This document shows positions 1,787 through 60,490 of a stretch of DNA of 64,000 bases, piece after piece (positions within the stretch are counted from its first letter, which is position 1; every line of letters starts with the position of its first letter). Below the pieces are notes generated by a model. It saw only the letters and a program-made list of their open reading frames with translations. It was not told where the DNA came from and did not search any database. Position numbers and translations under genes: made by a program. The DNA is from Portulaca oleracea (Eukaryota > Streptophyta > Magnoliopsida > Caryophyllales > Portulacaceae): contig CM055874.1 of NCBI GenBank assembly GCA_029582165.1, forward strand, positions 26,563,883 to 26,627,882, in the 5' to 3' direction.

Positions 1787-2392
1787 TCACAAGAAATTAC
1801 AATATTTCTTCTTAAATGTTTTGAAATCATCGTAGACTCCCTTACAAAACTTCCTCAACTTCTTCCAAAATAACCCAATGGCGCTTTTGGACTTTGTTTC
1901 TCGATACTCCACCATGGGTATAGGAATTCCATGTAACTCTAAAATTTCAAAATCCACAATTTGGCCTTCATCATTTAATATGAAGCGATCTACTCTCGAA
2001 TGATCACCCGTGACTATATTCTCTGGTCTTCTTCGAATCCTTGGCACTTCAACCATAAGATTCAAGTGGATATCTCTAGGGTGCACATGATAGATACGTT
2101 CCATTGGAGAATTCAAGATTGGAGGGTTGCTTAATTTGCATTCCTCCAAGTTTGTAAAAATAAGATCCTTATGCTCTTCATATCCATGATATTCCTTCTT
2201 CATGATTGTTACAATGCTACTTTCATCCTCCTTGGGCCGTGGGTTAGAAGATGGTGGTAGAGGTGTCAAAGTGATCTTCTTTTGGTGGAGGGTGAGAGTG
2301 TAAGTGTTGGCCCTCCCATCATGTATGACACTCCTATCGAACAACCATAGCCTTCCCAACAAAATATGACAAGTATCCATAGGCTTAGCCAT
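1787..2392 (-). pseudogene. R1 post-protease segment and degenerate integrase tail
   Basis: A 201-codon frame. It starts with the CHILLGRxWLFDR block that follows the protease in all these families, continues through an EEHKDLIFTNLEE spacer, then runs directly into a segment that aligns with integrase. LNLMVEVPRIRRR corresponds to LDFVVGLPRTQRG, and ELHGIPIPMVEYRETKS to KLHGIPKTMVSDRDSK. Both visible catalytic Asp positions are lost (N and Y). The HHCC finger, RT and RNase H are missing between spacer and tail. The same tail, with the same lost Asp residues, ends R3, so it is a family trait. Function unknown. Confidence 0.8.
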
Positions 2393-3675
2393 TGTATAGT
2401 GTAGGGTGTGGGATGAGGGCTAATCTCCATTTGCAATTTCTCGACCATTGTTGTAGAAGCGGCATTGGTGCAACTTCCTCCATCTATGATCAATGAGCAT
2501 ACTTTTCCTTTGATGGTACAACGAGAGCGAAAGATAGCCTCCCTTTGTACTTGATCATTTGGCACTGGAACTTCATTTAAGGCCCTTCCTACTACAAGTA
2601 ACTCTCCATCATCCGGCTCCTCTACACATTCTTCAACATTTTCTTCCTCATTCACGTCAACTCCCTTTTCCTCTTCACTCTCATTTTCATGACACTCCGG
2701 TTCTACATAGAAAGCACTTTGATATTCCACCAAAGATACTACTCTCTTGTTTAGGCACTCCGAAGCATAATGTCCCAACCCTTGGCATCGAAAACACCTT
2801 CTTGATGCTAGGAATTTGGTTTCTTGGACTTGGGGTTTATGGATGGATGGGGGCTGATTTTGTGGAGTTTTTGTGTTTGGGGGTTTTGTAGGGAATGTGG
2901 AATTTTGTTATGGCGTGTGTGGGAATGTAGGGTGGGATGATTCTTGTGGAGTTTGGTACTTGTTCAAGACTTCTTTTCCCTTATTTCTCCTTTGCCTCTC
3001 AACTTTAAGGGATAAAGAACTCAATTCATCCAAAGTTTTGTATGATTGCAACTCAACAATGTGTCTAATCCAATCATTAAGACCAAAAAGATAACGTACC
3101 AAAGTTTGTGGTTCATTCTCTTTGATATCACAACGCCAAAGAAGATGTTCAAACTCCTTTGTATATTCCTCCACACTTTTGCTCCCTTGAACCAATCGTT
3201 GTAGCTTGTAGTAGTTATCTTGGAGATAACTTGGTTGTAGAAACTTCTCTTGGAGCTTCTTCTTCATCTTATCCCACGTTCTAATCTTGTCCTTGCCCTT
3301 AGCTCGCCTCTTCTTTTGCAAATTGGCCCACCATATGGACGCATGTTTTCGCAATTTAAGAGCCACATACTTCACTTTCTTCTCATCATCAACTTCTTTA
3401 AGATCAAAAATACGTTCATCAGTTTGCATCCAATCTAAGAAGTTTTCAGGAATCTCCACTTTGAAACCAAAATGTTCTTCCCTTCTTTAACGTCTACTAC
3501 TTTAAGCATCCTCCTCATCTTCTTGAGGTTTTCTCACAAAAGAATCATCACGCATCTCTCTATGTTGAAGATGCATGTATCTCTTTAGTTGATTGTTGAG
3601 ATAGGTGATTCTTTTCTCTAATGCTTCAACATCTTCTTGGGGCTCCGTAGGTGTCGAAGTGCTTGAATCTTCCAT
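2266..3675 (-). pseudogene. R1 Gag and protease region (broken)
   Basis: Gag starts at ATG 3675-3673 (MEDSS...), preceded by an in-frame F-K that is probably not translated. It contains the Gag core (NFLDWMQT, KLRKHASIWWANLQKKR, KMKKKLQEKFL, YYKLQRLVQGSKSVEEYTKEFEHLLWRCD) and the end of the zinc knuckle (GHYASEC). The protease motif IIDGGSCTNAAS follows. Damage: the acidic region after codon 40 is lost with a stop near 3502, a short deletion lies near 3459, CAA became TAA at about 2908, and roughly 100 bp are deleted after YTIQWLS near 2390, which shifts the frame. Confidence 0.85.
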
Positions 3676-5899: not shown

Positions 5900-6208
5900 C
5901 AAAATGAACTAAGCTAGATTAAAACAATGATAACTTGCTCGTTTCAAATCCAAATTCCAAGATTCAAAAACCATTGGAAAGTTCTTTGAATAGTCTATCT
6001 TTGATTCTAGGATGACTTTCTCAAAAGCTTTATGGTTCTTGAGATATAGAGCAAATTACCGAGCTGCCCTTGTTGAAGCCATTCGTTTGTGTAAGAGACA
6101 TGAGTGAAAGGTGCTCCTTTTCCATGTAATCAAGTATTTAGCTCCTTTGGTGTGTATTTGATGTCTCCCTTGATGACCTTGATGTATATGGCTATCAAAT
6201 ATACATCA
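5900..6208 (-). repeat. B-family LTR remnant (U3 end)
   Basis: Matches the right third of the LTR at 11739-12728 (from caaaatgaactaagctag to CAAATATACATCA). It is the target into which A1 inserted. The rest of this LTR lies left of A1, outside the window. Confidence 0.85.
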
Positions 6209-10262: not shown

Positions 10263-11738
10263 CAAGAATGGACTCATGCTTTCACGCACCAAGCCTTTGG
10301 ATAGGAGCTCATCTACTTTCCTTTGTACTTCTTGAGCCTCCTTGGATTCATTCGATAGGCCGGTATGTTGGGGAGCATAGATGATAGAACCTGGAACTAG
10401 ATCAATTTTTTGCTCAATTTCCCTTCTTGGAGGTAATCCCTTGGACATCTCTTTTGGGAACAAGTGTTCGAATCGTTCCAAAAGAGGGTGAAGACGTGCA
10501 TGCACAATAGTTGGGGTCGCTTCTTCCTCCTCCAAGTTTGCTAGAATAAGATCTTTATGCTCTTGGAATTCATGATATTCGGCCTTCATGAATGTCACAA
10601 TGTTAGTCTCCTCCTTTTGTTGTTGTTGTTGTTGGGGACGTATGATCGATGATGGTGAGAGAGGAGCCAAAGTGATCTTCTTTTTGTTGAGAATAAACGT
10701 GTATGTGTTCATTCTCCCATCATGCGTGACATGCCTATCAAAAAGCCAAGGTCTCCCAAGCAAAATATGACAAGCATCCATTGGAATTACATCACACCAA
10801 ATAGAATCTTTATAGTTTCTACCAATGGAAAGACTTACAAGTACACGATGAACCACTCGAATTCCCTTCCCATGACTTAGCCATTGAATGGTGTAAGGGG
10901 ATGGGTGTGGACTAACCTCCAATTATAGTTTGTTCACCATGGTTGTAGAAGCGGCATTAGTGCAATTTCCTCCATCAATGATTAGAGAACACACCTTGCC
11001 TTGAATAGTACACCTTGTGTGAAAGATGTTCTCCCTTTGTTCTAGCTCGTTTGGAACACTAGCAACACTTAAGGCCCTTCTTACTACTAGCATTTCTCCT
11101 TCATAGGCCTCCTCTACTTCCTCTTCCGCATTCACGTCATCTTCTTCTTCTTTCTCCTGTTCATTTTCATGATACTCCGGTTCTACATACAAAGCACTTT
11201 GATATTCCACCAAAGATACTACCCTTTTGTTAGGACACTCCGAAGCATAATGTCCTAAGCCTTTACAACGAAAACACCTTCTTGGGGCTAGGGGTTTTGG
11301 TTCTTGGACGTGGGGTTTGGGGATGGATGGGGGTTGATTTTGTGGTGCTCTTGTGTTTGGTTGTTTTGTGGGGAATGTGGATTTTTGTGGTGGAATGTAA
11401 GAACGTGTGTTTTGTGGGGGTTTGTATGTGGTTTGATACTTGGTCACGTTTTCTTTCCCTCTTTCCTTTCTTTGCCTTTCTACTTTTAAGGGCAAAGAAC
11501 TCAATTCGTCAAAAGATTGGTAAGGATGCAATTCAACAATGTTATGAATCCATTCATTTAGACCATATAGAAAACGTACCAAAGTTTGAGGTTCATCCTC
11601 TTGGAGATCACAACGCCAAAGGATATGCTCGAATTCCTTTGTGTACTCCTCAACACTTTTGCTCCCTTGGACCAAACGTTGCAATTTGTAATAGTTATCT
11701 TGGAGATAAATTGGTGGTAGGAACTTTTCTTGCAACTT
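10197..11738 (-). pseudogene. A2 Gag C-terminal part, zinc knuckle, protease and spacer
   Basis: From the LTR insertion at 11738 leftward: EKFLPPIYLQDNYYKLQRLVQGSKSVEEYTKEFEHILWRCD, a Pro/Gln-rich linker, the CCHC knuckle RCFRCKGLGHYASEC, an acidic stretch, the protease motif IIDGG(N)CTNAAS, then the LLGRPWLFDR block and the spacer leading to RT. CAA to TAA at about 10923 splits it after TTMVNKL. The Asn in IIDGGN is Ser in the other copies. Confidence 0.88.
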
Positions 11739-12728
11739 TGATGTATAATGGGATCACAAGATCTCATTACACAAAAGGGTATAGGATCTTTAAGAGCGAA
11801 GATAAAAATCTCCTTTCTCAAAACTCTTAAGAATCGAAAATGGGATGGAAAACGAATGGAAAGATAGAAAGAACTATGAAAGATGATTACCAAATGGGTG
11901 ATTGATGAAGGACGAATGGTAATGAACGATTGGATGAATGATACGAATGTGTAAATGAATGGAATGAATGTAGGAATGAATGGAATGTAAGTTTCTTGAA
12001 TGATATTCAAATGAATCTTGAATTTGAAACAATGTAGAAACAAAAACAAGATCAAAAGAACTAGAAATGAAACTCACGATTGATAAGAATGATAATGGCT
12101 TTGAAGACTCCAATGAGGATATAGGCACACCACCTCAAAGAACTCTCCAATTCTACCTTTCACCACCAAGGGATGCCAACCCAAGGCTAGAAGTAGGGAT
12201 ATTCGAAACTCCCTCAAGAGATTAAAAAACTAGCACAAAAGCTAGAGAGAAAACAACACCATGTGTTTACTTTGTTTTTGATATATGAATGAATGACTTT
12301 ACAAGAGGCCTAAGGGGGTATTTATAGTAATCCCAAGCCCCCTTGGACGTGTACAAATCAAGAATCTAGGCCCCTTGAGGCCTACATCATCCTACACAAG
12401 TATGACATCATAAAGAATCAAAATGAACTAAGCTAGATTAAAACATTGATAACTTGCTCGTTTCAAATCCAAATTCCAAGATTCAAAAACCATTGGAAAG
12501 CTCTTTGAATAGTCTATCTTTGATTCTAGGATGACTTTCTCAAAAGCTTTATGGTTCTTGAGATATAGAGCAAATTACCGAGCTGCCCTTTGTTGAAGCC
12601 GTTCGTTTGTGTAAGAGACATGAGTGAAAGGTGCTCCTTTTCCATGTAATCAAGTATTTAGCTCCTTTGGTGTGTATTTGATGTCTCCCTTGATGACCTT
12701 GATGTATATGGCTATCAAATATACATCA
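11739..12728 (-). repeat. B LTR 1 (990 bp)
   Basis: TGATGTATAATGGGATCACAAG... to ...ATATACATCA, followed by the polypurine tract complement tactcccccgg (12729 on). The TATA complement lies near 12319-12326. The U3-end hairpin is at 12700-12728. Confidence 0.93.
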
Positions 12729-12785
12729 TACTCCCCCGGTTGAAAACGTTTGTCCTCAAACTTAGACAAAACTTCTTCTAAACCG

Positions 12786-15700
12786 TTACATAGAACTTCT
12801 TCTAAGCTCATCCTTCTTCATATAAGAGATCTTTCCAAAAGTATTGTTCACATCAACTTGCTTCTTCCTCTTGCATTCCTTGAAGAGATTACAAACTCTT
12901 TTTTTAAATGCTTTGAAATCATCATAGATCCCTTTGATGAACTTCCACTTTCTTCCATGTTTTCTCATGAATAATCCAATGATATCATGGTGCTTCAAAT
13001 CTCGTTTATTCATGGAGATTGTAGAAATCTCATATAACTTCTCAACTTCAAAGTATAGGTTCACAACCTTGTTACTCATGATGAAGATAATAGTATTATG
13101 GCGTTCCATCTTTGAAGGATGACCTTCAACGATCTTAATATCATCTTGACTTCCTTGAATCAAAGGCACTTCAACCATAAAATTCAAGTTTTCATCTCCA
13201 TATGGTATAGAAGGATTGCAAACGTCACAATATTGCAGCTTATACTCGATATCAACGATCATGCTAGGCCAGAAATAATACTCCTTCATCTTGAAATACG
13301 TATTTAGAAGACCCAAATTATCAAAAGAACTTCCATGTACTTCCATGATCAAGATTTCATGAATTCCACTCCTTGGAATACACACTTGATTCCCTTTGAA
13401 AAGAAATCCATGATCAATATTAAAGGATTGTTGACGATGCTTCTCACATACCTTGTATACTTCTTTAAAATCATCATCATCTTCATACAACTCCTTGGTA
13501 TATTCAAGCCTAAGTACTCTTGAATCAAATATGTATCTTCTTGTTAGAAAACTTCCTTTAGTCAAAGAAATTGCTTCCTCCAAGTGACTTGATTTTGATG
13601 AATGAATCAAGTGCTTCATCTCAAAACATGATGATGGCGTGATCTCCTCTTCATATAAAACATACTCCAATACTTTGTAAGATTCACGAAGCTTAAGCAT
13701 GATTCCTCCAAGATAATAATCTTTTTGCTCAAATACCCTCATGATAGCAACAAGTATGAATGCTAAGCCATAAGCATATAGCTTCTTCTTTTCTCCACTT
13801 AGTATGTCACCAAAATAATCCATGGGACAACTTCCTTGAGATAGGACTTCACCTTTCTCAACTTCATTTATAATGAACAAATATGATGAAAGAATAGGTA
13901 ATAAAAGAATATGATGATCTTTAGCATTCTTTAAGAGACATAGTACCTCAAGTATGGATGTAAGTATGGACCCTTCTTGAATAATTCCTTCTTTCCTTTT
14001 GTCCACTTGAATTACTCCATTTGATGAGGTATGTTGAGATAGCTCATTCTTGGACAAGAGGTAAGGATAATTCTCCAAGTACTTCTCCAATTCTCCATGT
14101 GGCTCCTCATGCTTCGTCAAGACTAACTCCAAAGGATTTACATACTCCATTCTACTTCTACTACATACAAAAATGTTATCAAAGTATACACATACATTCT
14201 CTTTACATTGCAATGGTACATACTCTTTCGAAATATGTTGTATACTATGAGAATCAAAGCCGTTGATGTAGTTATCCAAGAATTGCGCTTGATCCTTTGC
14301 ATAGACCATTCGGTGATGAATCATAGGATTTGGTGGCAGCCTTTGATGCATGATAATACTCATGGAAGGAAAACGTACCCAAAGAGATAAGTGAGAGAGG
14401 TCACTTGTTGATGGTGCTTGTCTTTCATGCAAATATTCACCAATGAGAACAAGTGGTGGCATAGGATCTTGATCCTTTATAGGCTCATGGTTTCCAACCT
14501 CCATTGGTGTAAGAATGAGACTCCTTGGTTCTTCAAATTCATGATACTTATGCTCCATTAGTGTCATAAAAGTACTTTGATCCTCCTTGAGCCGTGAGAC
14601 ACAAGGTGGTAATAAGGACGCCTCTTAAAGCATCATACTTCTATCATACAATTTTGATTCTTCCAACAAAGTATAACTAGAATCCATATAAGTAATATTA
14701 CAATATAATGAACTTTTGCAAATCTTGAAAAAACCAAGACTTACTAAACTTCTTGGATCCATATGGAGACAATTGCCATGGTGTGAATAGTTCTTCATTT
14801 GTAAATCTTCGACATTTGTTGTAGCGAGGCTAATATCTTGGACAAGATCAATGTCAATGTCAATGATGGCACAACTTTTTCCTTCTTGGATTAATGAACA
14901 CATTTCATCACGTAGCTCTTCTCCATTCAATTTTTCTACTTCCTCTACTTCAAGATCCTCCTCTATGTGTACCTCATTTACTTCTTTAGCCATGCTACTA
15001 CATACTTCTTGAACTTGCTCATTTTCAACAAAAACATCACATTCGGCAAATTCAACTTCTTCATTCACGCCTTCCTCCTCATACAATGGGTTGTCATATA
15101 CTTGAAACTCATCATTATTCTCCTCATACAATGGATTGTCATACACTTTAAACTCATCTTTAGGCACGCTACATACTACATTAACTTCCACATTCGTGCC
15201 AAGGTTATCACATACTTCATGAACATCCTCATACACGTCAAATACATCAAATGATTCACTTTCAAATTCTGGTTGCTCATAGGATGACGTTTGACATACA
15301 CTTTCAACATGATCAAAACTTTGGCAAGACAGACTTGTACTTTGGTCAATGATTTCCTCGTCTTGGATAATAGGAATGGGGAGGTTAGGGGCTGTTTTGT
15401 GGAGCTTTGGATAGTAGGTGTGGGGAGGTTTAGGGGTTGTTTTGTGGAGTGATGGGCAATAGGTTGTTGGGGTTGTTTTATAGGCGTTTGGACGAGAGGT
15501 TTGGGACGAGTTTGTGGCTTAGTTTCAAGGTCCTTGGCGTGGAATCGTTGGGATGGTTTGTGAGGTCTTTGTTGTATATGGGTTCTATCCCAAAGTTCTT
15601 TACTCTTTACTTGTATTTCAACATCAAGGGCTAAAGAACTTAACTCCTCCAAGTTTGTGTAAGATTGATATACAACAACACGCCGAATGTAATCATTAAG

Positions 15701-16084
15701 ACCAAGATAGTAACATACAAAAACTCGTTAATCATTCTCCTTAAGAGCATATTTCCATAGTTGCCGCCTGAATTCTGTTGTATATTCAACCACGTCCTTG
15801 CTCCCTTGCTCCATTCTTTCAAGTTTGTTGATGTAGTCTCCGTTGTAATTGAATGGCAAGAACTCTTCTTGAACTTTATTTCCATTCTTCTTGCTGGAAC
15901 GTTTACTCCATTCATAAGGTGCTTCATATTCAACCTCATAAGGGTATATCTCACGTGGATTTGCTCTTCTTGATCCCTTTTGAAGGATCCCAAGTTCTTC
16001 CATTTGTTTGGTGAGATCATCAAGTTGTCGTTTCATTTGTTGCATATCACCTAGTTAATCCAATAGAGAACTCACACACGCCAT
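12786..16084 (-). pseudogene. B1 degenerate Gag-Pro-RT-RNase H-IN polyprotein
   Basis: ATG 16084-16082 (MACVSSLL); the frame runs leftward to 12786, about 1100 codons, shorter than family A. It is colinear with A. Gag: KRQLDDL, LERMEQGSKDVVEYTTEFRRQLWKYA. Knuckle: reduced to SCQSFDHVESVC. Protease: IIDGG became IQEG. RT: YFDD became YFDN (14175-14186). RNase H: only GEKKKLYAYGLAF-like similarity. IN: LDF became LNF and VSDRD became MNKRD. A 593-codon stretch (14567-12786) is still open. Breaks: TAA at codon 10, a one-base deletion near 15378, and a TTTAA change at about 14625. The long open frames suggest it was translated until recently; its role is unknown. Confidence 0.8.
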
Positions 16085-16379
16085 GTAATATCAATCTTTG
16101 ATGAAGAAAGATTTGCAAGACTCTCGGTTTTGGGGTTTGGGGGGGTGAAGGACGAGAGGGTTTGTGTTTATGTGGTTTTTGTGTTTGATTTCGGGTTCTT
16201 TGTGGAGTTTATGGTTCTTTATGAGTTCTTGATGAGTTCTTGTTGAGTTCTTGATGAGTTCTTGGAAGAACTTATGGGTGGCGTGAGAATGGGGGGAAGG
16301 TGGGGGATGAATTTGTGATGGAAAGATGGTGAAAAGATTGTAAAAAGATGGATCAAGAACTAACAGAATCAACTCCTAA

Positions 16380-16391
16380 GCTCTGATACCA
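16380..16391 (-). other. Primer binding site of B1
   Basis: Complement of TGGTATCAGAGC, 4 bases inside LTR 2. Equivalent sites lie at 21043-21054 (B2) and 23483-23494 (B3). The leader 16085-16379 has GAGTTCTTGATG-type repeats and no gene. Confidence 0.92.
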
Positions 16392-16395
16392 ATTT

Positions 16396-17393
16396 TGATG
16401 TATAATGGGATCACAAGATCTCATTACACAAAAGGGTTTAGGATCTTTAAGAGAGAAGATGAAAATCTCCTTTCTCAAAGTTCTTAAGAATCGAAAATGG
16501 GATGGAAAACGAATGGAAAGATAGAAAGAACTATGAAAGATGATTACCAAATGGGTGATTGATGATGGACGAATGGTAATGAACGATTGGATGAAAGAAA
16601 CGAATGTGTAAATGAATGGAATGAATGTAGGAATGAATGGAATGTAAGTTTCTTGAATGATAGAATGATATTCAAATGAATCTTGAATTTGAAACAATGT
16701 AGAAACAAAAACAAGATCAAAAGAACTAGAAATGAAACTCACGATTGATAAGAATGATAATGGCTTTGAAGACTCCAATTAGGATATATGCACACCACCT
16801 CAAAGAACTCTCCAATTCTACCTTTCACCACCAAGGGATGCCAACCCAAGGCTAGAAGTAGGGATATTCGAAACTCCCTCAAGAGATTCAAAAACTAGCA
16901 CAAAAGCTAGAGAGAAAACAACACCATGTGTTTACTTTGTTTTTGATATATGAATGAATGAATTTACAAGAGGCCTAAGGGGGTATTTATAGTAATCCCA
17001 AGCCCCCTTGGACGTGTACAAATCAAGAATCTAGGCCCCTTGAGGCTTACATCATCCTACACAAGTATGACATCATAAAGAATCAAAATGAACTAAGCTA
17101 GATTAAAACATTGATAACTTGCTCGTTTCAAATCCAAATGCCAAGATTCAAAAACCATTGGAAAGCTCTTTGAATAGTCTATCTTTGATTCTTGGATGAC
17201 TTTCTCAAAAGCTTTATGGTTCTTGAGATATAGAGCAAATTACCGAGCTGCCCTTTGTTGAAGCCGTTCGTTTGTGTAAGAGACATGAGTGAAAGGTGCT
17301 CCTTTTCCATGTAATCAAGTATTTAGCTCCTTTGGTGTGTATTTGATGTCTCCCTTGATGACCTTGATGTATATGGCTATCAAATATACATCA
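16396..17393 (-). repeat. B LTR 2 (998 bp), shared by B1 and B2
   Basis: Acts as the 5' LTR of B1 (PBS on its left) and as the 3' LTR of B2 (polypurine tract on its right at 17394). Nearly identical to LTR 1. Confidence 0.93.
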
Positions 17394-17450
17394 TACTCCC
17401 CCGGTTGAAAACGTTTGTCCTCAAACTTAGACAAAACTTCTTCTAAACCG

Positions 17451-20400
17451 TTACATAGCACTTCTTCTAAGCTCATCCTTCTTCTTATAAGAGATCTTTC
17501 CAAAAGTATTGTTCACATCAACTTGCTTCTTCCTCTTGCATTCCTTGAAGAGATTACAAACTCTTTTTTTAAATGCTTTGAAATTATCATAGATCCCTTT
17601 GATGAACTTGCACTTTCTTCCATGTTTTCTCATGAATAATCCAATGATATCATGGTGCTTCAAATCTCGTTTAATCATGGAGATTGTAGAAATCTCATAT
17701 AACTTCTCAACTTCAAAGTATAGATTCACAACCTTGTTACTCATGATGAAGATTATAGTATTATGGCGTTCCATCTTTAAAGGATGACCTTCAACGATCT
17801 TAATATCATCTTGACTTGAATCCATGGCACTTCAACCATAAAATTCAAGTTTTCATCTCTATATGGTATAGAAGGATTGCAAACGTCACAATATTGCAGC
17901 TTATACTCGATATCAACGATCATGCTAGGCCAGAAATAATACTCCTTCATCTTGAAATACGTATTGAGAAGACCCAAATTATCAAAAGAACTTCCATGTA
18001 CTTCCATGATCAAGATTTCATGAATTCCACTCCTTGGAATACACAATTGATTCCCTTTGAAAAGAAATCCATGATCAATATTAAAGGATTGTTGACGATG
18101 CTTCTCACATACCTTGTATACTTCTTTAAAATCATCATCATCTTCATACAACTCCTTGGTATATTCAAGCCTAAGTACTCTTGAATCAAATATGTATCTT
18201 CTTGTTAGAAAACTTCCTTTAGTCAAAGGACTTGCTTCCTCCAAGTGACTTGATTATGATGAATGAATCAAGTACTTCATCTCAAAACATGATGATGGCG
18301 TGATCTTCTCTTCATATAAAACATACTCCAATACTTTGTAAGATTCACGAAGCTTAAGCATGAATCCTCCAAGATAATATTCTTTTTGCTCAAATACCCT
18401 CATGATAGCAACAAGTATGAATGCTAAGCCATAAGCATGTAGCTTCTTCTTTTCTCCACTTAGTATGTCACCAAAATAATTTATGGGACAACTTCCTTGA
18501 GATAGGACTTCACCTTTCTCAACTCCGTTTGTAATGAACAAATATGATGAAAGAATAGGGAATAAAAGAATATGATGATCTTTAGCATTCTTTAAGAGAC
18601 ATAGTACCTCAAGTATGGATGTAAGTATGGACCCTTCTTGAGTAATTCCTTCTTTCCTTTTGTCCACTTGAATTATTCCATTTGATGAGGTATGTTGAGA
18701 TAGCTCATTCTTGGACGAGAGGTATGGACAATTCTCCAAGTACTTCTCCAATTCTCCATGTGGCTCCTCATGCTTCGTCAAGACTAACTCCAAAGGATTT
18801 ACATTCTCCTTTCTACTTCTACTACATACAAAAATGTTATCAAAGTATACACATACATTCTCTTTACATTGCAATGGTACATACTCTTTCGAAATATGTT
18901 GTATACTATGAGAATCAAAGCCGTTGATGTAGTTATCCATGAATTGCGCTTGATCCTTTGCATAGACCATTCGGTGATGAATCATAGGATTTGGTGGCAG
19001 CCTTTGATGCATGATAATACTCATGGAAGGGAAACGTACCCAAAGAGATAAGTGAGAGAGGTCACTTGTTGATGGTGCTTGTCTTTCATCAAAATATTCA
19101 CAAATGAGAACAAGTGGTGGCATAGGATCTTGATCCTTTATTGGCTCACGGTTTCCAACCTCCATTGGTGTAAGAATCAAACTCCTTGGTTCTTCAAATT
19201 CATGATACTTATGCTCCATTAGTGTCATAAAAGTACTTTGATCCTCCTTGAGCCGTGAGACACAAGGTGGTAATAAGGATGCCTCTTGGAGCATCATACT
19301 TCTATCGTACAATTTTGATTCTTCCAACAAAGTATAACTAGAATCCATAGAAGTAATATTACAATATAATGAACTTTTGCAAATCTTGTAAAAACCAAGA
19401 CTTACTAAACTTCTTGGATCCATATGGAGACAATTGCGATGGTGTGAATAGTTCTTCATTTGCAATTCTTCGATATTTGTTGTAGCGAGGCTAATATCTT
19501 GGACAAGATCAATGTCAATGTCAATGATGGCACAACTTTCTCCTTCTTGGATTAATGAACACATTTCATCACGTAGCTCTTCTCCATTCAATTTTTCTAC
19601 TTCCTCTACTTCAAGATCCTCCTCTATGTGTACCTCATTTACTTCTTTAGCCATGCTACTACATACTTCTTGAACTTGCTCATTTTCAACAAAAACATCA
19701 CATTCGGCAAATTCAACTTCTTCATTCACGCCTTCCTCCTCATACAATGGGTTGTCATTTACTTGAAAATCATCATTATTCTCCTCTTACAATGGATTGT
19801 CATACACTTTAAACTCATCTTTAGGCACGCTACATACTACATTAACTTCCACATTCGTGCCAAGGTTATCACATACTTCATGTACATCCTCATACACGTC
19901 AAATACATCAAATGATTCACTTTCAAATTCTGGTTGCTCATAGGATGACGTTTGACATACACTTTCAACATGATCAAAACTTTGGCAAGATAGACTTGTA
20001 CTTTGGTCAATGATTTCCTCGTCTTGTACAATAGGAATGGGGAGGTTTAGGGGTTGTTTTGTGGAGCTTTGGATAGTAGGTGTGGGGAGGTTTAGGGGCT
20101 GTTTTGTGGAGTGATGGGCAATAGGTTGTTGGGGTTGTTTTGTAGGCGTTTGGACGAGAGGTTTGGGACGAGTTTGTGGCTTAGTTTCAAGGTCCTTGGC
20201 GTGGGATTGTTGGGATGGTTTGTGAGGTTTTTGTTGTATATGGGTTCTATCCCAAAGTTCTTTACTCTTTACTTGTATTTCAACATCAAGGGCTAAAGAA
20301 CTTAACTCCTCAAAGTTTGTGTAAGATTGATATACAACAACACGCCGAATGTAATCATTAAGACCAAGAGAGTAACATACAAAAAATCGTTGATCATTCT

Positions 20401-20746
20401 CCTTAAGAGCATATTTCCTTAGTTGCTGTCTGAATTCTATTGTATATTAAACCACGTCCTTGCTCCCTTGCTCCATTCTTTCAAGTTTGTTGATGTAGTC
20501 TCCTTTGTAATTGAATGGCAAGAACTCTTCTTGAAATTTATTTCCATTCTTCTTGCTGGAACGTTTACTCCATTCATAAGGTGCTTTATATTCAACCTCA
20601 TAAGGATGTATCTCACGTGGATTTGCTCTTCTTGATCCCTTTTGAAGGATCCCAAGTTCTTCCATTTGTTTGGTGAGATCATCAAGTTGTCGTTTCATTT
20701 GTTGCGTATCACCTTGTGAATCCAATAGAGAACTCACACACGCCAT
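17451..20746 (-). pseudogene. B2 degenerate polyprotein
   Basis: ATG 20746-20744. The same order and the same lost catalytic residues as B1, including YFDN and LNF. One reading frame runs from 20746 to 17777 with only three stops (near 20447, 19790 and 18251), then a short substitution near 17816 shifts the last 125 codons. Its 497-codon stretch 19747-18254 is uninterrupted. An acidic 15-residue unit (core VYDNPLYEE) is present twice in tandem in this family. Comparing the stops with B1 and B3 shows they are private to each copy, so the common ancestor had a longer open frame. Confidence 0.8.
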
Positions 20747-21058
20747 GTAATATCAATCTTTGATGAAGAAAGATTTGCTAGACTCTCGATTTTGGGGTTT
20801 TGGGGGGGTGAAGGACGAGAGGGTTTATGTTTATGTGGTTTTTGTGTTTGATTTGGGGTTCTTTGTGGAGTTTATGGTTCTTTATGAGTTCTTGATAAGT
20901 TCTTGTTGAGTTCTTGATGAGTTCTTGGAAGAACTTATGGGTGGCGTGAGAATGGAGGGAAGGTGGGGGATAAATTTGTGATGGAAAGATTGTGAAAAGA
21001 TTGTAAAAAGATGGATCAAGAACTAAGAGAATCAACTCTTAAGCTCTGATACCAATTT

Positions 21059-21092
21059 TTATGTATAATGGGATCACAAGATCTCATTACAC
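21059..21092 (-). repeat. B LTR stub (34 bp) and deletion junction
   Basis: After the B2 PBS the LTR starts (TTATGTATAATGG..., first G mutated) and stops after 34 bp. It is joined to B3 internal sequence equivalent to about 18670 in B2. The rest of the LTR and about 1.3 kb of B3 are deleted. Confidence 0.85.
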
Positions 21093-23189
21093 TTGAATTA
21101 TTCCACTTAAATTATTCCATTTGATGAGGTATGTTGAGATCGCTCATTCTTGGATGAGAGGTGAGGACAATTCTCTAAGTACTTCTCGAATTCTCCATGT
21201 GGCTCCTCATGCTTCGTCAAGACTAACTCCAAAGCATTTACATACTCCTTTCTACTTCTACTAAATACAAAAATGTTATCAAAGTATACACATATATTCT
21301 CTTTACATTGCAATGGTATGTACATACTATTTCGAAATATGTTTTATACTATGAGAATCAAAATCGTTGATGTAGTTAACTATGAATTGCGCTTGATCCT
21401 TTGCATAGACCATTCGGTGATGAATCATAGGATTTGGTGGCAGCCTTTGATACATGATAATACTCATTGAAGAGAAACGTACCCAAAGAGATAAGTGAGA
21501 GAGGTCACTTGTTGATGGTGCTTGTCTTTCATCCAAATATTCACAAATGAGAACAAGTGATGGCATAGGATCTTGATCCTTTATAGGCTCACGGTTTCCA
21601 ACCTCCATTGGTGTAAGAATGAGACTCCTTGGTTCTTCAAATTCATGATACTTATGCTCCATTAGTGTCACGAAAGTACTTTGATCCTCCTTGTGCCGTG
21701 AGACACAAGGTGGTAATAAGGACGCCTCTTGGAGCATCATACTTCTATCATACAATTTTGATTCTTCCAACAAAGTATAACTAGAATCCATAGAAGTAAT
21801 ATTACAATATAATGAACTTTTGCAAATCTTGTAAAACCCAAGACTTACTAAACTTCTTGGATCCATATGGAGATCATTCCCATGGTGTGAATAGCTCTTC
21901 ATTTGCAATTCTTGAACATTTGTTGTAGCGAGGCTAATATCTTGGACAAGATCAATGTCAATGTCAATGATGGCACAACTTTCTCCTTCTTGGATTAATG
22001 AACACATTTCATCATGTAGCTCTTCTCCATTAAATTCTTCTACTTCCTCTACTTCAAGATCCTCCTCTATGTGTACCTCTTTTACTTCTTTAGCCATGCT
22101 ACTACATACTTCTTAAACTTGCTCATTTTCAACAAAAACATCACATTCGGCAAATTCAACTTCTTCAGTCACGCCTTCCTCCTCATACAATGGGTTGTCA
22201 TATACTTGAAACTCATCATTATTCTCCTCATACAATGGATTGTCATACACTTTAAACTCATCTTTAGGCACGCTACATACTACATTAACTTCCACATTCG
22301 TGCCAAGGTTATCACATACTTCATGAACATCCTCATACACGTCAAATACATCAAATGATTCACTTTCAAATTCTGGTTGCTCATAGGATGACGTTTGACA
22401 TACACTTTCAACATGATCAAAACTTTGGCAAGATAGACTTGTACTTTGGTCAATGATTTCCTCGTCTTGGACAATTGGAATGGGGAGGTTTAGGGGCTGT
22501 CTTGTGGAGCTTTGGATAGTAGGTGTGGGGAGGTTTAGGGGCTGTTTTGTGGAGTGATGGGCAATAGGTTGTTCGGGTTGTTTTGTAGGCGTTTGGACGA
22601 GAGGTTTGGGACGAGTTTGTGGCTTAGTTTCAAGGTCCTTGGCGTGGGATTGTTGGGATGGTTTGTGAGGTCTTTGTTGTATATGGGTTCTATCCCAAAG
22701 TTCTTTACTCTTTACTTGTATTTCAACATCAAGGGCTAAAGAACTTAACTCCTCCAAGTTTGTGTAAGATTGATATACAACAACACGCCGAATGTAATCA
22801 TTAAGACCAAGAGAGTAACATACAAAAAATCGTTGATCATTCTCCTTAAGAGCATATTTCTATAGTTGCCGCCTGAATTCTATTGTATATTCAACCACGT
22901 CCTTGCTCCCTTGCTCCATTCTTTCAAGTTTGTTGATGTAGTCTCCTTTGTAATTGAATGGCAAGAACTCTTCTTGAACTTTATTTCCATTCTTCTTGCT
23001 GGAACGTTTACTCCATTCATAAGGTGCTTCATATTCAATCTCATAAGGATGTATCTCACGTGGATTTGCTCTTCTTGATCCCTTTTGAAGGATCCCAAGT
23101 TCTTCCATTTGTTTGGTGAGATCATCAAGTTGTCATTTCATTTGTTGCATATCACCTTGTGAATCCAATAGAGAACTCACACACGCCAT
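21093..23189 (-). pseudogene. B3 degenerate polyprotein, 3' part deleted
   Basis: ATG 23189-23187; reads leftward through Gag, degenerate knuckle, degenerate protease and the first RT part, again with YFDN (about 21274-21285). RNase H and IN are deleted at the LTR stub. The stretch 22757-22113 is open; CGA to TGA early in Gag and a TAA near 22113 break it. Because B3 retains the frame that B1 lost at 15378, it supports the reconstruction of one long ancestral frame. Confidence 0.8.
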
Positions 23190-23498
23190 GTAATATCAAT
23201 CTTTGATGAAGAAAGATTTGCAAGACTCTCAGTTTTGGGGTTTGGGGGGGTGAAGGACGAGAGGGTTTGTGTTTATGTGGTTTTTGTGTTTGATTTGGGG
23301 TTCTTTGTGGAGTTTATGGTTCTTTATGAGTTCTTGATGAGTTCTTGTTGAGTCTTGATGAGTTCCTGGAAGAACTTATGGGTAGCGTGAGAATGGGGGG
23401 AAGGTAGGGATGAATTTGTGATGGAAAGATGGTGAAAAGATTGTAAAAAGATGGCTCAAGAACTAAGAGAATCAACTCCTAAGCTCTGATACCAATTT

Positions 23499-24097
23499 TG
23501 ATGTATAATGCGATCACAAGATCTCATTACACAAAAGGGTTTAGGATCTTTAAGAGCGAAGATGAAAATCTCCTTTCTCAAAGTTCTTAAGAATTGAAAA
23601 TGGGATGGAAAACGAATGGAAAGACAGAAAGACCTGTGAAAGATGATTACCAAATGGGTGATTGATGATGGACGAATGGTAATGAACGATTGGATGAATG
23701 AAACGAATATGTAAATGAATGGAATAAATGTAGGAATGAATGGAATGTAAGTTTCTTGAATGATAGAATGATATTCAAATGAATCTTGAATTTGAAACAA
23801 TGTAGAAACAAAAACAAGATCAAAAGAACTAGAAATGAAACTCACGATTGATAAGAATGATAATGGCTTTGAAGACTCCAATGAGGATATAGGCACACCA
23901 CCTCAAAGAACTCTCCAATTTTACCTTTCACTACCAAGGGATGCCAACCCAAGGCTAGAAGTAGGGATATTCGAAACTCCCTCAAGAGATTCAAAAACTA
24001 GCACAAAAGCTAGAGAGAAAACAACACCATGTGTTTACTTTGTATTTGATATATGAATTAATGAATTTACAAGAGGCCTAAGGGGGTATTTATAGTA
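23499..24097 (-). repeat. B LTR, truncated (599 bp)
   Basis: 5' LTR of B3. It stops at tatttatagtaa and switches to the end of a C LTR. The junction shares AGTAA (24094-24098) with both partners. Confidence 0.9.
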
Positions 24098-25140
24098 ACA
24101 AGCTTATATGACTTGAGCATGCTTGAGCAGATTCCCATCAAGAGAGAGAGGAAAGTTGACGTGTGGTTATTGGGAGGGAGAGAGTTTGAGAGGTTGTTGG
24201 AGGAGAGAGAAATTTGTTAGGAGATTGTTATGGAGAGAGAGGGAGTTGGTTAAGCTATTTTGTGAGGAGGGAGGAGGGTGGATTATTGAGGGAATATGGG
24301 AGGTAGAGGGTGACGTTGGAGGGGAGGATGGGTGAGGGTAGATATTATCTTTCTAAGAAATAGAAAGATAACGGGATAGAACTAGATTTCCTACTTGAAT
24401 CCACAAGAAGGACAACCTTGGGTTTCTTGATCTAGACCGCAACCTAAGATCAAGTTCTTCCTAAACCACTTGGTTACCACACCAAGATGCAATAGAAGAG
24501 GGGAGAGGGTTAATCCTAACACTCAAGGGGGTAAGCTTAAAGCTCGATTCATATTTCTCAACTGATTGATTTCTAAAGATTGCAAACTAGGCTATTTATA
24601 CTAGGAGACTCCTAACTCCCCTAGGATTCCTTACTTGGCGTGCAAGCCATACTAATTAGAATAGGATTACTCCTACTTGGCATGCAAGCCAAGAAATCCT
24701 AGTAGTACACGCCTAACTACTCCAACTTCCTCTTGGATTAGGACACCTTATCTAAAGGAGAGTTAGTTACAACAACCTTATCCTAATAGGTTTAGGATTT
24801 CCTAATCCAATATGGATTACTTACAAAATAAGCCAACCTTATCTACGATAACAACCATTTTGGCGCCTATCTTCCTATCACACGCCTATTTTGACTTTCT
24901 AGAACATTCTAGAACAGTTTAGAATGTTCTAGATTTATCTACTCCTAATTAATTAAATTACACCAAAATAATAAAAGCTATAAAAATAAAATACATCCAA
25001 AAAGAGCACAATTGACGAGATTGACCCTCATGGACGTGACTTGGGCCTCTTCTTGGACTTGATTGGCGTGTTGTTGTAGACCCTAGGATGTTTGGACATC
25101 CTCTTGCCATAAGGAGCACACAATATGTATGGGCCTATGG
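24094..25140 (-). repeat. Copied C-LTR/E-LTR junction patch
   Basis: 24094-24140 is the last 47 bp of a C LTR; 24141-25140 is E LTR. The same join, including the C insertion point, recurs at about 41435-42480. Since that join was created by the C insertion at 41481, the patch must be a later copy of that region. The right junction, to R2, shares TGG. No gene is visible; the segment is LTR sequence with a purine-rich stretch (24139-24340). Confidence 0.85.
24897..24934. promoter_or_regulatory. HSE-like array in copied E LTR
   Basis: Eight 3-bp half sites spaced by exactly 2 bp: TTC, GAA, TTC, GAA, GTT, GAA, TTC, GAT. Six match the heat-shock-factor half site (nGAAn or its complement) exactly. 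It is the counterpart of 42238-42275. Confidence 0.6.
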
Positions 25141-25384
25141 ATCTCTTAGTTGAAAAGCCAAGGCTTCGAAGGAACCAAGAAGCTAAAGTCATCAAAGTAG
25201 GTTGTTTCATGCTAAATGATGAAGGTAAAGTTGTGAAGCTTGACTTGGAAATTGAGAAGCTACATGGAATCTCTATGTTCATGATGAAAATTCGAGGATC
25301 CAAGTCTTATAATGCCCATGGATTACTTGGGAGAAAGATGAAGAAGTTTAGAAAAGGGGTATATGATGATTTCAAGGCCATTTA
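25141..25384 (+). pseudogene. R2 left copy: degenerate integrase tail
   Basis: Open 81-codon fragment (LLVEKPRLRRN...KGVYDDFKAI). Nearly identical to the tail at 28176-28428 apart from a few substitutions (for example SMFMMK versus SIFMVK). Followed by the polypurine tract (CGGGGGAGTA) and an LTR. Confidence 0.8.
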
Positions 25385-26464: not shown

Positions 26465-26468
26465 AAAT

Positions 26469-51364: not shown

Positions 51365-51638
51365 AAATTGGTATCAGAGCTTAGGAGTTGATTCTCTTAG
51401 TTCTTGATCCATCTTTTTACAATCTTTTCACCATCTTTTCCATCACAAATTCATCCCCCACCTTCCCCCCATCTCAGGTCTACCAAGAACCACAAAAAGA
51501 ACCCCATAGCCCCACAAAGAACCCCCAATTCGAACACAAAATCCACCAAAACACAATCCCCTCTCGTCCTTCACCCCCCCCCCCCCAAACCCCAAAAATC
51601 GTGAATCTTGCAATCTTTTTGCACCAAGATTGATCAAG

Positions 51639-53077
51639 ATGGAAGATTCAAGCACTCTCACACCCACACCTACGGAGCCCCAAGAAGATGTTGAAGCATT
51701 AAAGAAAAGAATCACCTATCTCAACGATCAACTAAAGAGATACATGCATCTACAACATAGGGTGAACCGTGGAGATAGTGAGACTAATGAAAGTGATGAA
51801 GAGTTGCCACAAAGACGTTCCCCAAAGGAGGAACGATTCGACTTCAAAGTTGAGATTCCGGAGTTTAATGGTAATCTTGATCCCGAGAACTTCTTAGATT
51901 GGATGCAAACTATTGAATGTGTTTTTGATCTTAAAGAAGTCCTTGATGGGAAGAAAGTGGAGTATGTGGCTCTTAAGTTGCGAAAACATGCGTCCATATG
52001 GTGGGCCAATTTGCAAAAGAAGAGGCAAGCAAAGGGCAAGGACAAGATTAGAACATGGGATAAAATGAAGAAGAAGCTCCAAGAGAAGTTTCTACCACTA
52101 AGTTATCTCCAAGATAACTACTACAAGTTACAACGATTGGTTCAAGGGAGCAAAAGTGTGGAGGAATATACAAAGGAGTTTGAACATCTTCTTTGGCGTT
52201 GTGATATCAAAGAGAATGAACAACAAACTTTCGTACGTTATCTTTTTGGTCTTAATGATTGGATTAGACACATTGTTGAATTGCAACCATACAAAACCTT
52301 GGATGAGTTGAGTTCCTTATCCCTTAAAGTTGAAAGGCAAAGGAGGAATAAGGGAAAAGAAGCCTTGAACAAGTACCAAACTCCACAAGAATCATCCCAC
52401 CCTACATTCCCACACACGCCACATCAAAATTCCACATTCCCTACAAAACCCCCAAACACAAAAACTCCACAAAATCAGCCGCCATCCATCCATAAACCCC
52501 ATGTCCAAGAAACCAAATTCCTAGCATCAAGAAGGTGTTTTCGATGCCAAGGGTTGGGACATTATGCTTCGGAGTGCCCAAACAAGAGAGTAGTATCTTT
52601 GGTGGAATATCAAAGTGCTTTGTATGTAGAACCGGAGTGTCATAAAAATGAGAGTGAAGAGGAAAAGGGAGTTGACGTGAATGAGGAAGAAAATGTTGAA
52701 GAATGTGTAGAGGAGCCGGATGATGGAGAGTTACTTGTGGTAGGAAGGGCCTTAAATGAAGTTCAAGTGCCAAGTGATAAAGTACAAAGGGAGGCTATCT
52801 TTCGCTCTCGTTGTACCATCAAAGGAAAAGTATGCTCATTGATCATAGTGGAGGAAGTTGCACCAATGCCGCTTCTACAACAATGGTCGAGAAATTGCAA
52901 ATGGAGATTAACCCTCATCCCACACCCTACACTATACAATGGCTAAGCCTAGGACAAGGCATTCGTGTGGATCAAAGGGTCTTGGTAAGTCTTTCAATTG
53001 GGAAGAATTATAAAGATTCATTATGGTGTGATATTATTCCTATGGATACTTGTCACATTTTGTTGGGAACACCATGA
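51639..53077 (+). pseudogene. R3 Gag-protease
   Basis: ATG 51639 (MEDSSTLTP). The most complete Gag of family R: LNDQLKRYMHLQHRVNRGD, IPEFNGNLDPENFLDWMQT, KLRKHASIWWANLQKKR, KMKKKLQEKF, EFEHLLWRCD, CCHC RCFRCQGLGHYASEC, acidic spacer. A one-base loss at about 52847 inside the protease motif (LII-DGGS) shifts the frame; the protease continues in the frame ending at 53077, where TGG became TGA in the RPWLFDR block. Confidence 0.9.
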
Positions 53078-53635
53078 TTGTTCGATACGAGTGCCATATA
53101 TGATGGGAGAGCTAACACTAACACTCTCACCCTCCATCAAAAGAAGATCACTTTGACACCTCTACCACCATCTTCTAACCCACGGCCCAAGGAGGATGAA
53201 AGTAGCATTGTAACAATCATGAAGAAGGAATATCATGGATATGAAGAGCATAAGGATCTTGTTTTTGCAAACTTAGAGGAAAGTAAAACAAGCAACCATC
53301 CAATCTTGAATTCTCCAATGGAACGTATCTATCATGTGCACCCTAAAGATATCCACTTGAATCTTATGGTTGAAGTGCCAAGGATTCGAAGAAGACAAGA
53401 GAATATTGTCACGGTCGATCATTCGAGAATAGGTCGCTTCATATTAAATGATGAAGGCCAAATTGTGGATTTTGAAATTTTGGAGATACATGGAATTCCT
53501 ATACCCATGGTGGAGTATCAAGAAACAAAGTCCAAAAGCGCCATTGGGTTATTTTGGAAGAAGTTGAGGAAGTTTTGTAAGGGAGTCTATGATGACTTCA
53601 AAGCATTTAAGAAGAAAGATTGTAAATTCTTGTGA
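53078..53635 (+). pseudogene. R3 spacer and degenerate integrase tail
   Basis: Open 185-codon frame, colinear with 2392-1787 in R1: TLHQKKITLTPLPPSS, EEHKDLVFANLEE, RIYHVHPKDIHLNLMVEVPRIRRR, GRFILNDEGQIVDFEI, HGIPIPMVEYQETKS, FWKKLRKFCKGVYDDFK. The lost Asp residues are the same as in R1. Since R1 and R3 have different target duplications, the family moved after this state arose. Confidence 0.85.
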
Positions 53636-58802: not shown

Positions 58803-60490
58803 TGATGTATAATGGGATCACAAGATCTCATTATACAAAAGGGTTTAGGATCTTTAAGAGCGCAGATGAAAATCTCCTTTGTCAAAGTTCTTAAGAATCG
58901 AAAATGGAATGGAAAACGAATGGAAAGATAGAAAGAACTATGAAGATGATTACCAAATGGGTGATTGATGATGGACGAATGGTAATGAACGATTAGATGA
59001 ATGAAACGAATGTGAAAATGAATGGAATGAATGTAGGAATGAATGGAATGTAAGTTTCTTGAATGATAGAATGATATTCAAATGAATCTTGAATTTGAAA
59101 CAATGTAGAAACAAAAACAAGATCAAAAGAACTAGAAATGAAACTCACGATTGATATGAATGATAATGGCTTTGAAGACTCCTATGAGGATATAGGAACA
59201 CCTGATGTATAATGGGATCAAGAGATCTCATTACACATAGAAATCAGGATATTTAAAAACTAAGATAAGAATCTTGCTTCTCAAAGTTCTTAAAGATCAA
59301 CCAAATTCAATGAAATGATGTATAATAGGATCAAGGATGATCAAATTATACAAAAGATTAGGATCTTTAAGTGTTTCTTTAAGATTGAATGAATGAATCA
59401 AAGAATGGATGGATAAACCAATGGAATGGTCGAAATGGATGAATGAAATGAATGTAGGAATGGATGGAATGTAAGTTTCTTGAATGATTGAATGATATTC
59501 AAATGAATCTGGAATTTGAAACAATGTAGAAACAAAAACAAGATCAAAAGAACTAGAAAGAAACTCACGATTTGAATGATGAATGATAATGGCTTTGAAG
59601 ACTCTTGGAGGATACAGCCACACCACCTTCAAGAATGCTTCAATCTCTTCCTATCACCATGTGTTTACTTTGTATTTGATATATTGAATGAATTGATTAC
59701 AAGGGCCTCCCAAGGGGTCTATTTATAGTAGAAGAGGACCCCCCTAGGCGTGCCTAACATCAAGAAACAAAGGATTTCTAGCTTACATCATCTATTACAA
59801 GTATGACATCATAAAGAATCAAAATGAACAAAGCTAGATTAAAACTTGAATAACTTGCTCGTTTCTTCTCCAAATTCCAAGATTCAAAAACCATTGGAAA
59901 GCTTTTTGAATGGTCTATCTTTGATTCTAGGATGACTTTCTCAAAAGCTTTATGGTTCTTGAGATATGGAGCAAATGACCGAGTTGCCCTTGTTGAAGCC
60001 ATTCGTTTGTGTAAGAGACATGAGTGAATGGGGCTCCTTTTCGATGTAAACAAGTATTTAGCTCCTTTGGTGTGTATTTAATGTCTCCCTTGATGACCTT
60101 AATGTATATGGCTATCAAATATACATCAACACCACCTCAAAGAACTCTCCAATTCTACCTTTCACCACCAAAGGATGCGAACCCAAGGCTGGAAGTAGGG
60201 ATATTCGAAACTCCCGCAAGAGATTCAAAAACTAGCACAAAAGCTAGAGAGAAAATAACACCATGTGTTTACTTTATATTTGATATATGAATGAATGAAT
60301 TTACAAGAGGCCTAAAGGGGTATTTATAGTAATCCCAAGCCCCCTTGGACGTGTACAAATCAAGAATCTAGGCTCCTTGAGGCTTACATCATCCTACACA
60401 AGTATGACATCATAAAGAATCAAAATGAACTAAGCTAGATTAAAACAATGATAACTTGCTCGTTTCAAATCCAAATTCCAAGATTCAAAA
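58803..60490 (-). repeat. B LTR, interrupted by D2 and by another B LTR
   Basis: 58803-59202 and 60134-60490 (60129-60133 is the duplicated target) match LTR 11739-12728. D2 sits between them. At 60490 (agattcaaaa) a B LTR in the opposite direction starts, so the rest is beyond the window. Confidence 0.88.
59203..60128 (-). mobile_element. D2: solo LTR, mosaic, TSD ACACC
   Basis: TG...CA unit with ACACC at 59198-59202 and 60129-60133. Second LTR-type start at 59316, 113 bp in, as in D1. Unlike D1, its right part matches B LTRs (gccattcgtttgtgtaagagac), and its middle has a deletion near 59659. Confidence 0.88.

What the first reader, a model, noticed from the sequence alone, without database searches (positions are those of the whole stretch)
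12786..23189. Family B: a frame-preserved polyprotein with every visible catalytic motif destroyed
Three internal copies align end to end with Gag-Pro-RT-RNase H-IN of family A. Changes shared by the copies that retain each region: protease IIDGG to I(Q)EG, RT YFDD to YFDN in all three, IN LDF to LNF and VSDRD to (M/I)KRD in B1 and B2, knuckle first Cys lost. Yet frames of 593, 497 and 256 codons remain open, and the stops that exist are private to each copy. So the ancestor had a frame of about 1100 codons that was already inactive, and dispersed B LTRs (5900, 58803, 60491) show the family moved. A neutral relic should lose its frame as fast as its motifs. A structural or interfering polyprotein would explain this.
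Basis: partly seen in the sequence, partly recalled or inferred. Interest (0 to 1): 0.8.

Follow-up and report, generated by a model that had tools for sequence, protein, structure and literature searches.

The report
Dead retrotransposon polyprotein kept open
In a plant genome, a family of jumping elements has lost its recognisable enzymes, yet the copies that gave rise to others seem to have kept one reading frame of about 1,100 codons open, which suggests that making the protein, or at least translating the RNA, still matters to a parasite that depends on others to move.

Summary
The sequence facts are right with corrections. B1-B3 are degenerate relatives of a CRM-like Ty3/gypsy Gag-Pol: protease, knuckle, RT, RNase H and integrase motifs are lost, yet pieces of 593, 497 and 256 codons are open. 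They do not align end to end with family A: half of capsid, most of RT and the integrase C-terminus are missing. B1 and B2 share an LTR and are mutual nearest relatives. Genome-wide, 84 B matches lie on 26 contigs; 0 of the 50 copies read keep YFDD. Single copies decay neutrally, so youth explains frame length within a copy. It does not explain the family: stops are 37 of 860 single-copy variants but 2 of 292 variants carried by three or more copies; frame-changing indels are 39 of 51 private but 0 of 6 shared internal events (1 of 7 with a looser copy filter). Amino-acid constraint in B is significant only in the integrase-derived C-terminus; the Pro-RT-RH relic changes neutrally but stays open. 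A second non-autonomous family (Gag-Pro plus a dead integrase tail) shares that tail and the cis signals. Best reading: a trans-mobilised non-autonomous element whose translated frame is selected. New variant of a known kind.

The parts
11738..12728 (-). 3' LTR of B1 (starts TGATGTATATTTGAT, ends CATTATACATCA); abuts a family A gag, probably the insertion site
12729..16395 (-). B1 internal region; open pieces 12786-14624, 14625-15518, 15176-15727, 15728-16054
12786..13592 (-). B1 integrase-derived C-terminal part: degenerate HHCC domain plus catalytically dead core tail
16396..17393 (-). LTR shared by B1 (as 5' LTR) and B2 (as 3' LTR)
17394..21058 (-). B2 internal region; open pieces 17451-17831, 17777-18253, 18254-19786, 19787-20446, 20447-20752
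18254..19786 (-). B2 spacer-protease-RT-RNase H relic (510 codons), the piece used for the genome searches
21059..21101 (-). stub of B2's 5' LTR and junction to truncated B3
21102..23498 (-). B3 internal region, truncated in RT
23499..24098 (-). 5' LTR of B3, truncated
5900..6208 (-). dispersed B LTR fragment
   Evidence: 98.7% to 12419-12728
58803..60490 (-). dispersed B LTR interrupted by a related LTR at 59203-60128 flanked by ACACC on both sides
60490..61044 (+). dispersed B LTR fragment in opposite orientation
51510..53635 (+). family D copy: Gag-Pro and dead integrase-core tail (53078-53635), shares tail and cis signals with B
1787..3486 (-). second family D copy

Best explanation
B is a non-autonomous LTR retrotransposon derived from a CRM-like Ty3/gypsy element and moved in trans by elements of the type of family A. 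Shown: dead catalytic motifs in every copy read, dispersal on 26 contigs, cis signals shared with A (LTR ends, primer site) and D (also the polypurine tract), neutral decay of single copies, and depletion of stops and frameshifts among variants carried by several copies. Inferred: B RNA is translated into a polyprotein of about 1,100 residues whose ends, a capsid C-terminal part and an integrase-derived tail, help the RNA that encodes them (a cis effect, for example joining the particle or integration complex that A supplies), while the protease-RT-RNase H relic survives as a spacer that must only stay in frame.
For: 84 scored B matches of 15,742 first-look candidates; 61 of the 84 have no stop in the matched stretch (up to 510 codons) and open frames reach 1,156 codons. 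No YFDD and no protease Asp-Gly-Gly in 50 of 50 copies. Stops: 37 of 860 single-copy variants, 2 of 292 in variants of three or more copies (Fisher p 0.002), 0 of 175 in six or more (p 0.0014); expected from codon composition 10-17 of 292. Frame-changing indels: 39 of 51 private, 0 of 7 listings (6 events) shared internal (p 0.0002); with copies of 180 or more aligned codons 50 of 64 against 1 of 8 listings (p 0.0005); with the C-terminal end included 4 of 13 shared (p 0.003). Integrase-derived end: shared N/S 1.71 against 4.31 in single-copy variants (p 0.0026), codon-model omega 0.69, 2dlnL 10.6 (omega 1 fitted on a coarse kappa grid). B and D tails, both dead, differ at pS 0.69 and pN 0.40 (p 0.006). 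LTR end plus primer site: 6 exact and 2 one-mismatch occurrences in the window, beside A, B and D internals.
Against: Gag constraint is not significant (p 0.15; omega 0.85, 2dlnL 2.5). D tail within D: shared against single-copy p 0.35, omega 0.90 not different from 1. The middle is neutral (omega 0.89, 2dlnL 2.9). Five stops occur in more than one copy; in variants carried by exactly two copies stops are 3 of 183. With the looser filter one frame-changing deletion is shared by two copies. The last dozen codons vary freely, with shared frame-changing indels. In one 34-codon gag block B and D differ by dS 0.40 and dN 0.30, little constraint. The predicted structure of the C-terminal part is unreliable (mean pLDDT 40). 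No transcript or peptide evidence was available. The main sample was ranked by protein score. That A elements are active is not shown: the A copies in the window are broken.
Confidence: 0.55

Rival explanations
1. Selection keeps the frame for the RNA, not the protein: an early stop would leave a very long 3' untranslated part and expose the RNA to nonsense-mediated decay or poor packaging, so only copies with an open frame are copied, whatever they encode.
For: The 510-codon middle has 1 stop in 130 variants of three or more copies (11 of 426 single-copy) with neutral amino-acid change (shared N/S 3.61, single-copy 3.07). The extreme C-terminus tolerates stops and frameshifts, as expected if only early stops matter.
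Against: The integrase-derived end is constrained at amino-acid level (p 0.0026, omega 0.69), as is the B-D tail comparison. In wheat, non-autonomous Angela elements with heavily frameshifted coding regions still proliferated (passages of PMC9744471).
Confidence: 0.25
2. Neutral youth: the source element died shortly before the burst, and all frames are open only because too little time has passed.
For: Copies are close (median pairwise difference 4.1%) and private changes are neutral, with about the stop number expected. One gag block is only moderately diverged from A (dS 0.76-0.80).
Against: Shared variants, which predate the tips, lack stops and frameshifts. B is far from A: dS saturated or near saturation in two of three blocks compared, gag dN 0.43-0.49, RT relic 25-43% identical, which neutral drift could not give without dozens of stops (stop fraction 4.6% of random changes). 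Six shared internal indels in frame.
Confidence: 0.12
3. Interfering polyprotein: B makes a capsid/integrase-like protein that poisons A particles and is kept as copy-number control, as for the Gag-derived restriction factor of yeast Ty1.
For: Truncated capsid plus dead integrase domain is the kind of product that could poison an assembly; Ty1 copy-number control by a gag-derived factor is known (start of abstract in a search listing, PMC7055915).
Against: No test here; an interfering protein acts in trans on all elements and would not by itself favour the copy that encodes it, whereas the data point to selection among copies.
Confidence: 0.05
4. B multiplied by LTR recombination and local duplication only.
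For: The window array with a shared LTR and sister copies B1/B2.
Against: 84 matches lie on 26 contigs.
Confidence: 0.03

Closest known systems
RLG_Quinta with RLG_Cereba (einkorn wheat centromeres; PMC11302176, abstract, passages and section 6 read)
   Same: Non-autonomous CRM-type family with an ORF without RT/integrase, sharing LTR ends and primer site with an autonomous partner that is proposed to move it
   Different: Quinta keeps Gag plus a domain of unknown function; B has half a capsid, no intact knuckle and a long dead Pro-RT-RH-IN relic in frame
noaCRM of hop (PMC12371157, passages read)
   Same: Lacks RT, RNase H and integrase, shares primer sites with autonomous CRM; family D here looks alike
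   Different: The passages seen describe no dead integrase tail and no test of frame selection; B is further decayed but frame-kept
Sabrina_SA / WHAM with Wilma, and non-autonomous Angela (wheat; PMC9744471, passages read)
   Same: Sabrina_SA keeps an intact Gag-Pro frame without RT/integrase, like D
   Different: Non-autonomous Angela proliferated with many stops and frameshifts, the opposite of B
Ty1 copy-number control by a Gag fragment (PMC7055915, search listing only)
   Same: A truncated element protein that affects its own family
   Different: Not tested here; B is a separate mobile family, not an internal product

Membership tests
CRM clade of Ty3/gypsy chromoviruses (families A, B and D) | LTRs beginning TGATG and ending T/CATCA in most members (PMC3059260 passages) | tested here: met
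   TGATGTA ... ACATCA in A, B and D
CRM clade of Ty3/gypsy chromoviruses (families A, B and D) | Placement in an RT phylogeny with named CRM elements | not tested
   no named reference set was aligned; the CRM label rests on LTR ends and on recalled Gag/protease motifs
CRM clade of Ty3/gypsy chromoviruses (families A, B and D) | CR motif or type II chromodomain at the integrase C-terminus (groups A and C) | not tested
   the A integrase reads past GPY into a further tail, not compared with a reference
Non-autonomous CRM (noaCRM / Quinta type), applied to B | No functional RT, RNase H, integrase | tested here: met
   0 of 50 copies with YFDD; integrase LNF in B1 and B2
Non-autonomous CRM (noaCRM / Quinta type), applied to B | Primer site and LTR termini shared with an autonomous partner | tested here: met
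   shared with A-type elements; two of the wheat authors' five pairing criteria, the others not tested
Non-autonomous CRM (noaCRM / Quinta type), applied to B | Intact Gag (capsid and CCHC knuckle) in the ORF | tested here: not met
   partial Retrotrans_gag below Pfam's cut-off (21.0 and 18.9 bits against 24.1); knuckle Cys lost
Non-autonomous CRM (noaCRM / Quinta type), applied to D | Gag in the ORF, no RT | tested here: met
   Retrotrans_gag 6e-16, zf-CCHC 4e-5; tail follows protease directly
Centromere-enriched element | Location in CENH3 chromatin | not testable with these tools
   B copies cluster (nearest other B median 0.26 Mb for the 77 of 83 with one on the contig; nearest B to 63 of 64 D 1.1 Mb; to 63 of 74 RVT_1 hits 7.2 Mb), but there are no CENH3 data

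The most novel reading that the evidence does not exclude
B and D descend from one catalytically dead integrase lineage and conserve its tail as a non-catalytic module, for example as extra subunits of A's integration complex or as a targeting or particle-entry tag, so that a whole group of non-autonomous elements is kept alive by a dead integrase fragment acting on the RNA that encodes it.
Probability: 0.18. Interest if true: 0.75.

Novelty: new variant of a known kind. Interest (0 to 1): 0.5.

Why it matters
Non-autonomous elements are usually seen as either empty or Gag donors. A family that lost its enzymes but whose spreading copies kept a whole frame points to selection for translation without catalysis, and splits a polyprotein into constrained and free-running parts. 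Because wheat Angela elements spread with broken frames (PMC9744471, passages), the contrast makes it testable when a trans-mobilised element needs its own protein or only a translated RNA.

Tried and rejected
Rejected: multiplication by LTR recombination only (dispersal); neutral youth as the whole answer. Led nowhere: homologues of the B middle piece among 5.8 billion proteins, none at E 0.001 of 5,819 candidates, although the database holds plant relatives of D Gag-Pro (213 hits, 120 listed); solved structures for the C-terminal part, none; AlphaFold2 of that part with 14 sequences, mean pLDDT 40, so no fold search was made. PADLOC, PHROGs, NCBIfam, RNA-family, tRNA and viral-contig tools were not used.

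Dropped or weak: one search read minus-strand loci in the wrong orientation and is discarded (repeated). In one search several pieces were read in a wrong frame (gagC_spacer B1-B2 and B1-B3, spacer_pro B2-B3, pol3), so its totals are not used, only the stops seen in the in-frame pieces. One search stopped with an error. In one search several copies with unrelated flanks gave spurious indels; one search drops copies with under 200 aligned codons (15 of 50 for gag, many of them carriers of the 261-bp deletion; 5 of 50 for the C-terminal part). On checking I repeated the indel count with the same position cut for both classes and with a looser filter: the looser filter adds one shared frame-changing deletion, now reported. 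One 12-base event is listed at two places and counted once as an event. In the D alignment one copy is present twice (window and locus), so 34 rows are 33 copies. Falling dN/dS with dS in the pairwise bins is partly an artefact of binning on dS and is not used as evidence. The distance comparison uses 83 of the 84 B matches, the first 74 of 150 RVT_1 hits (other lineages) and 64 of 150 D hits thinned by hand, so it is only indicative.
Full report
What the window is. The window lies at C7:26563883-26627882 of an unnamed 1.13-Gb assembly in 63 contigs (that it is a plant is inferred from the CRM-like elements and from the plant names among relatives of D Gag-Pro).

Anatomy of B. On the minus strand the order from low coordinates is LTR (11738-12728), B1, a shared LTR (16396-17393), B2, an LTR stub, truncated B3, truncated LTR (to 24098). 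B1-B2, B1-B3 and B2-B3 differ at 2.6, 3.3 and 3.3% of sites. A single shared LTR between two internals is the product expected of unequal LTR recombination, and B1 and B2 are mutual nearest relatives among 50 copies. Along the frame: capsid C-terminal part (Retrotrans_gag E 4e-4, 21.0 bits, below Pfam's cut-off of 24.1), spacer with a broken knuckle, protease relic, RT relic around YFDN, RNase H relic, integrase zinc-binding domain that still passes Pfam's cut-off (26.6-28.8 bits against 25.5) although one of its histidines is gone, and a tail from the integrase core with LNF for LDF.

B is not a recent break of A. In an ungapped 66-codon integrase block B differs from A by dS 1.9-3.2 and dN about 0.19, while two A copies differ by dS 0.27 and dN 0.03. 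In a 39-codon gag block B-A dN is 0.44-0.49 and dS is saturated. A third block, 34 codons of gag, is less extreme: B-A dS 0.76-0.80 and dN 0.43-0.45, B-D dS 0.40-0.41 and dN 0.30-0.32 (all). The RT/RNase H relic is 25-43% identical to A at protein level. About 4.6% of random substitutions in these frames create a stop (3.7-5.4% for transition weights 4 to 1).

Within copies decay is neutral. Of 2,392 three-way columns, B1, B2 and B3 carry 33, 33 and 46 private changes, and three, three and four stops plus one frame-changing indel each. That is near what neutrality predicts after insertion (roughly two stops each by the fraction above), so frame length in a single copy is explained by youth.

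Across copies the frame is kept. A protein search with a 510-codon B2 piece scored 84 matches (of 15,742 first-look candidates) at 86-100% identity on 26 contigs; 61 of 84 have no stop in the matched stretch and open frames reach 1,156 codons. I read 50 of the 84: no copy has YFDD (46 of 50 read YFDN, one YSDN, two YFDS, one YFDI) and none has the protease Asp-Gly-Gly. In the middle piece variants in three or more copies are 101 N, 28 S, 1 stop; single-copy variants are 313 N, 102 S, 11 stops. In the flanks, which did not influence ranking, gag (47 of 50 copies) gives 161 N, 55 S, 18 stops single against 56 N, 29 S, 0 stops shared, and the C-terminal part (45 of 50) 155 N, 36 S, 8 stops single against 48 N, 28 S, 1 stop shared. 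Pooled: stops 37 of 860 against 2 of 292 (p 0.002) and 0 of 175 in six or more copies (p 0.0014). Variants in exactly two copies lie between (3 stops of 183). Indels in gag (35 of 50 copies) and C-terminal part (45 of 50): private 39 frame-changing and 12 in frame; shared internal events of 261, 117, 45, 12, 51 and 9 bases, all in frame (p 0.0002 on 7 listings). With copies of 180 or more aligned codons (47 and 46 of 50) one 1-base deletion is shared by two copies: 1 of 8 listings against 50 of 64 private (p 0.0005). Beyond reference position 770 of 807 in the C-terminal piece, 4 of 6 shared listings change the frame; with these included the contrast is 4 of 13 against 39 of 51 (p 0.003). The last dozen codons are free.

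Ranking bias. A DNA search, blind to frame, finally gave 40 best matches of 2,375 candidates. Net length difference was 0 in 33, -15 in one and frame-changing in six; four of the six were read and each had its own single internal indel at a different place, no stop, and the dead RT motif. Frameshifted copies thus exist and are a minority in the frame-blind list too; compensating indels would not show in net length.

Which parts are constrained. N/S of shared variants relative to single-copy variants is 0.40 in the integrase-derived end (p 0.0026), 0.66 in gag (p 0.15), 1.18 in the middle (p 0.56); both ends pooled p 0.002. Codon models over all branches, neutral tips included: omega 0.69 (2dlnL 10.6) for the C-terminal part, 0.85 (2.5) gag, 0.89 (2.9) middle (omega 1 fitted on a coarse kappa grid). 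The middle therefore behaves like a spacer: free in sequence, not free in frame. No same-genome control family was run through the shared-variant test.

A second family shares the tail. Family D encodes Gag, knuckle and protease followed directly by the post-protease linker and an integrase-core remnant. The 185-codon piece gave 150 scored matches of 17,810 candidates, 66-99% identical, most without a stop. In 33 copies read (34 rows, one twice) the first catalytic Asp is Asn in all and the second Asp region has no Asp. B and D share LN-MVEVP and GLF..K...KF.KG.YDDFKAFKK, absent from A. Between B and D the tail differs at pS 0.69, pN 0.40 (p 0.006; with the other D type 0.57 and 0.32, p 0.017) and between two D types at pS 0.57, pN 0.29 (p 0.008). 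Against this, within D the tail gives p 0.35 and omega 0.90, while its protease-linker part is constrained (p 0.009; omega 0.71, 2dlnL 5.6). Asp to Asn alone is not diagnostic: a C copy in the window has it too (38066-38926).

Mechanism. LTR ends and primer site are the same in A, B and D; the polypurine tract and LTR start of B are matched exactly at two of four D sites, with one or two mismatches at the others, and with six at the A-type sites. This meets two of the five criteria that wheat authors use for autonomous/non-autonomous pairs (PMC9744471, passages; also PMC11302176). That A moves B, that B is translated and what its ends do are inferences. Selection among copies needs an effect on the RNA that encodes the protein, either a cis-acting protein or translation itself; I favour the former because of the constrained end.

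Literature. Abstract, passages and section 6 of PMC11302176, passages of PMC9744471, PMC3059260, PMC12371157 and PMC4079200 were seen; the rest only as listings. In those searches I saw no report of a non-autonomous plant element with a selected frame over dead Pro-RT-RH-IN; the library holds open-licence papers only.

Verdict.

Noticed in passing
51510-53635 (+), 1787-3486 (-), 25137-28422 (+): Family D: Gag-Pro with a catalytically dead integrase-core tail in place of RT-RNase H-integrase, very diverse genome-wide (66-99% identity in 150 scored matches).
   Followed up: partly
L111 (C5:30478400-30483000): A D-type tail listed within an open frame of 1,244 codons, far longer than other D frames (next 748); may be a fusion or another type.
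   Followed up: no
59203-60128: A related LTR nested in a B LTR with ACACC on both sides, a 5-bp target-site duplication.
   Followed up: partly
24094-24400 and 41435-41741: 96.7% identical stretch next to the truncated B3 LTR and far away in the window, of unknown nature.
   Followed up: no
38066-38926 (-): Family C integrase also reads LNF for LDF, so this change arises independently, perhaps by deamination.
   Followed up: no
B copies genome-wide, gag piece positions 512 and 528 of the reference: Two large in-frame deletions (261 and 117 bases; 16 and 5 of 47 copies) mark B subfamilies, a spacer that shrinks in frame.
   Followed up: partly
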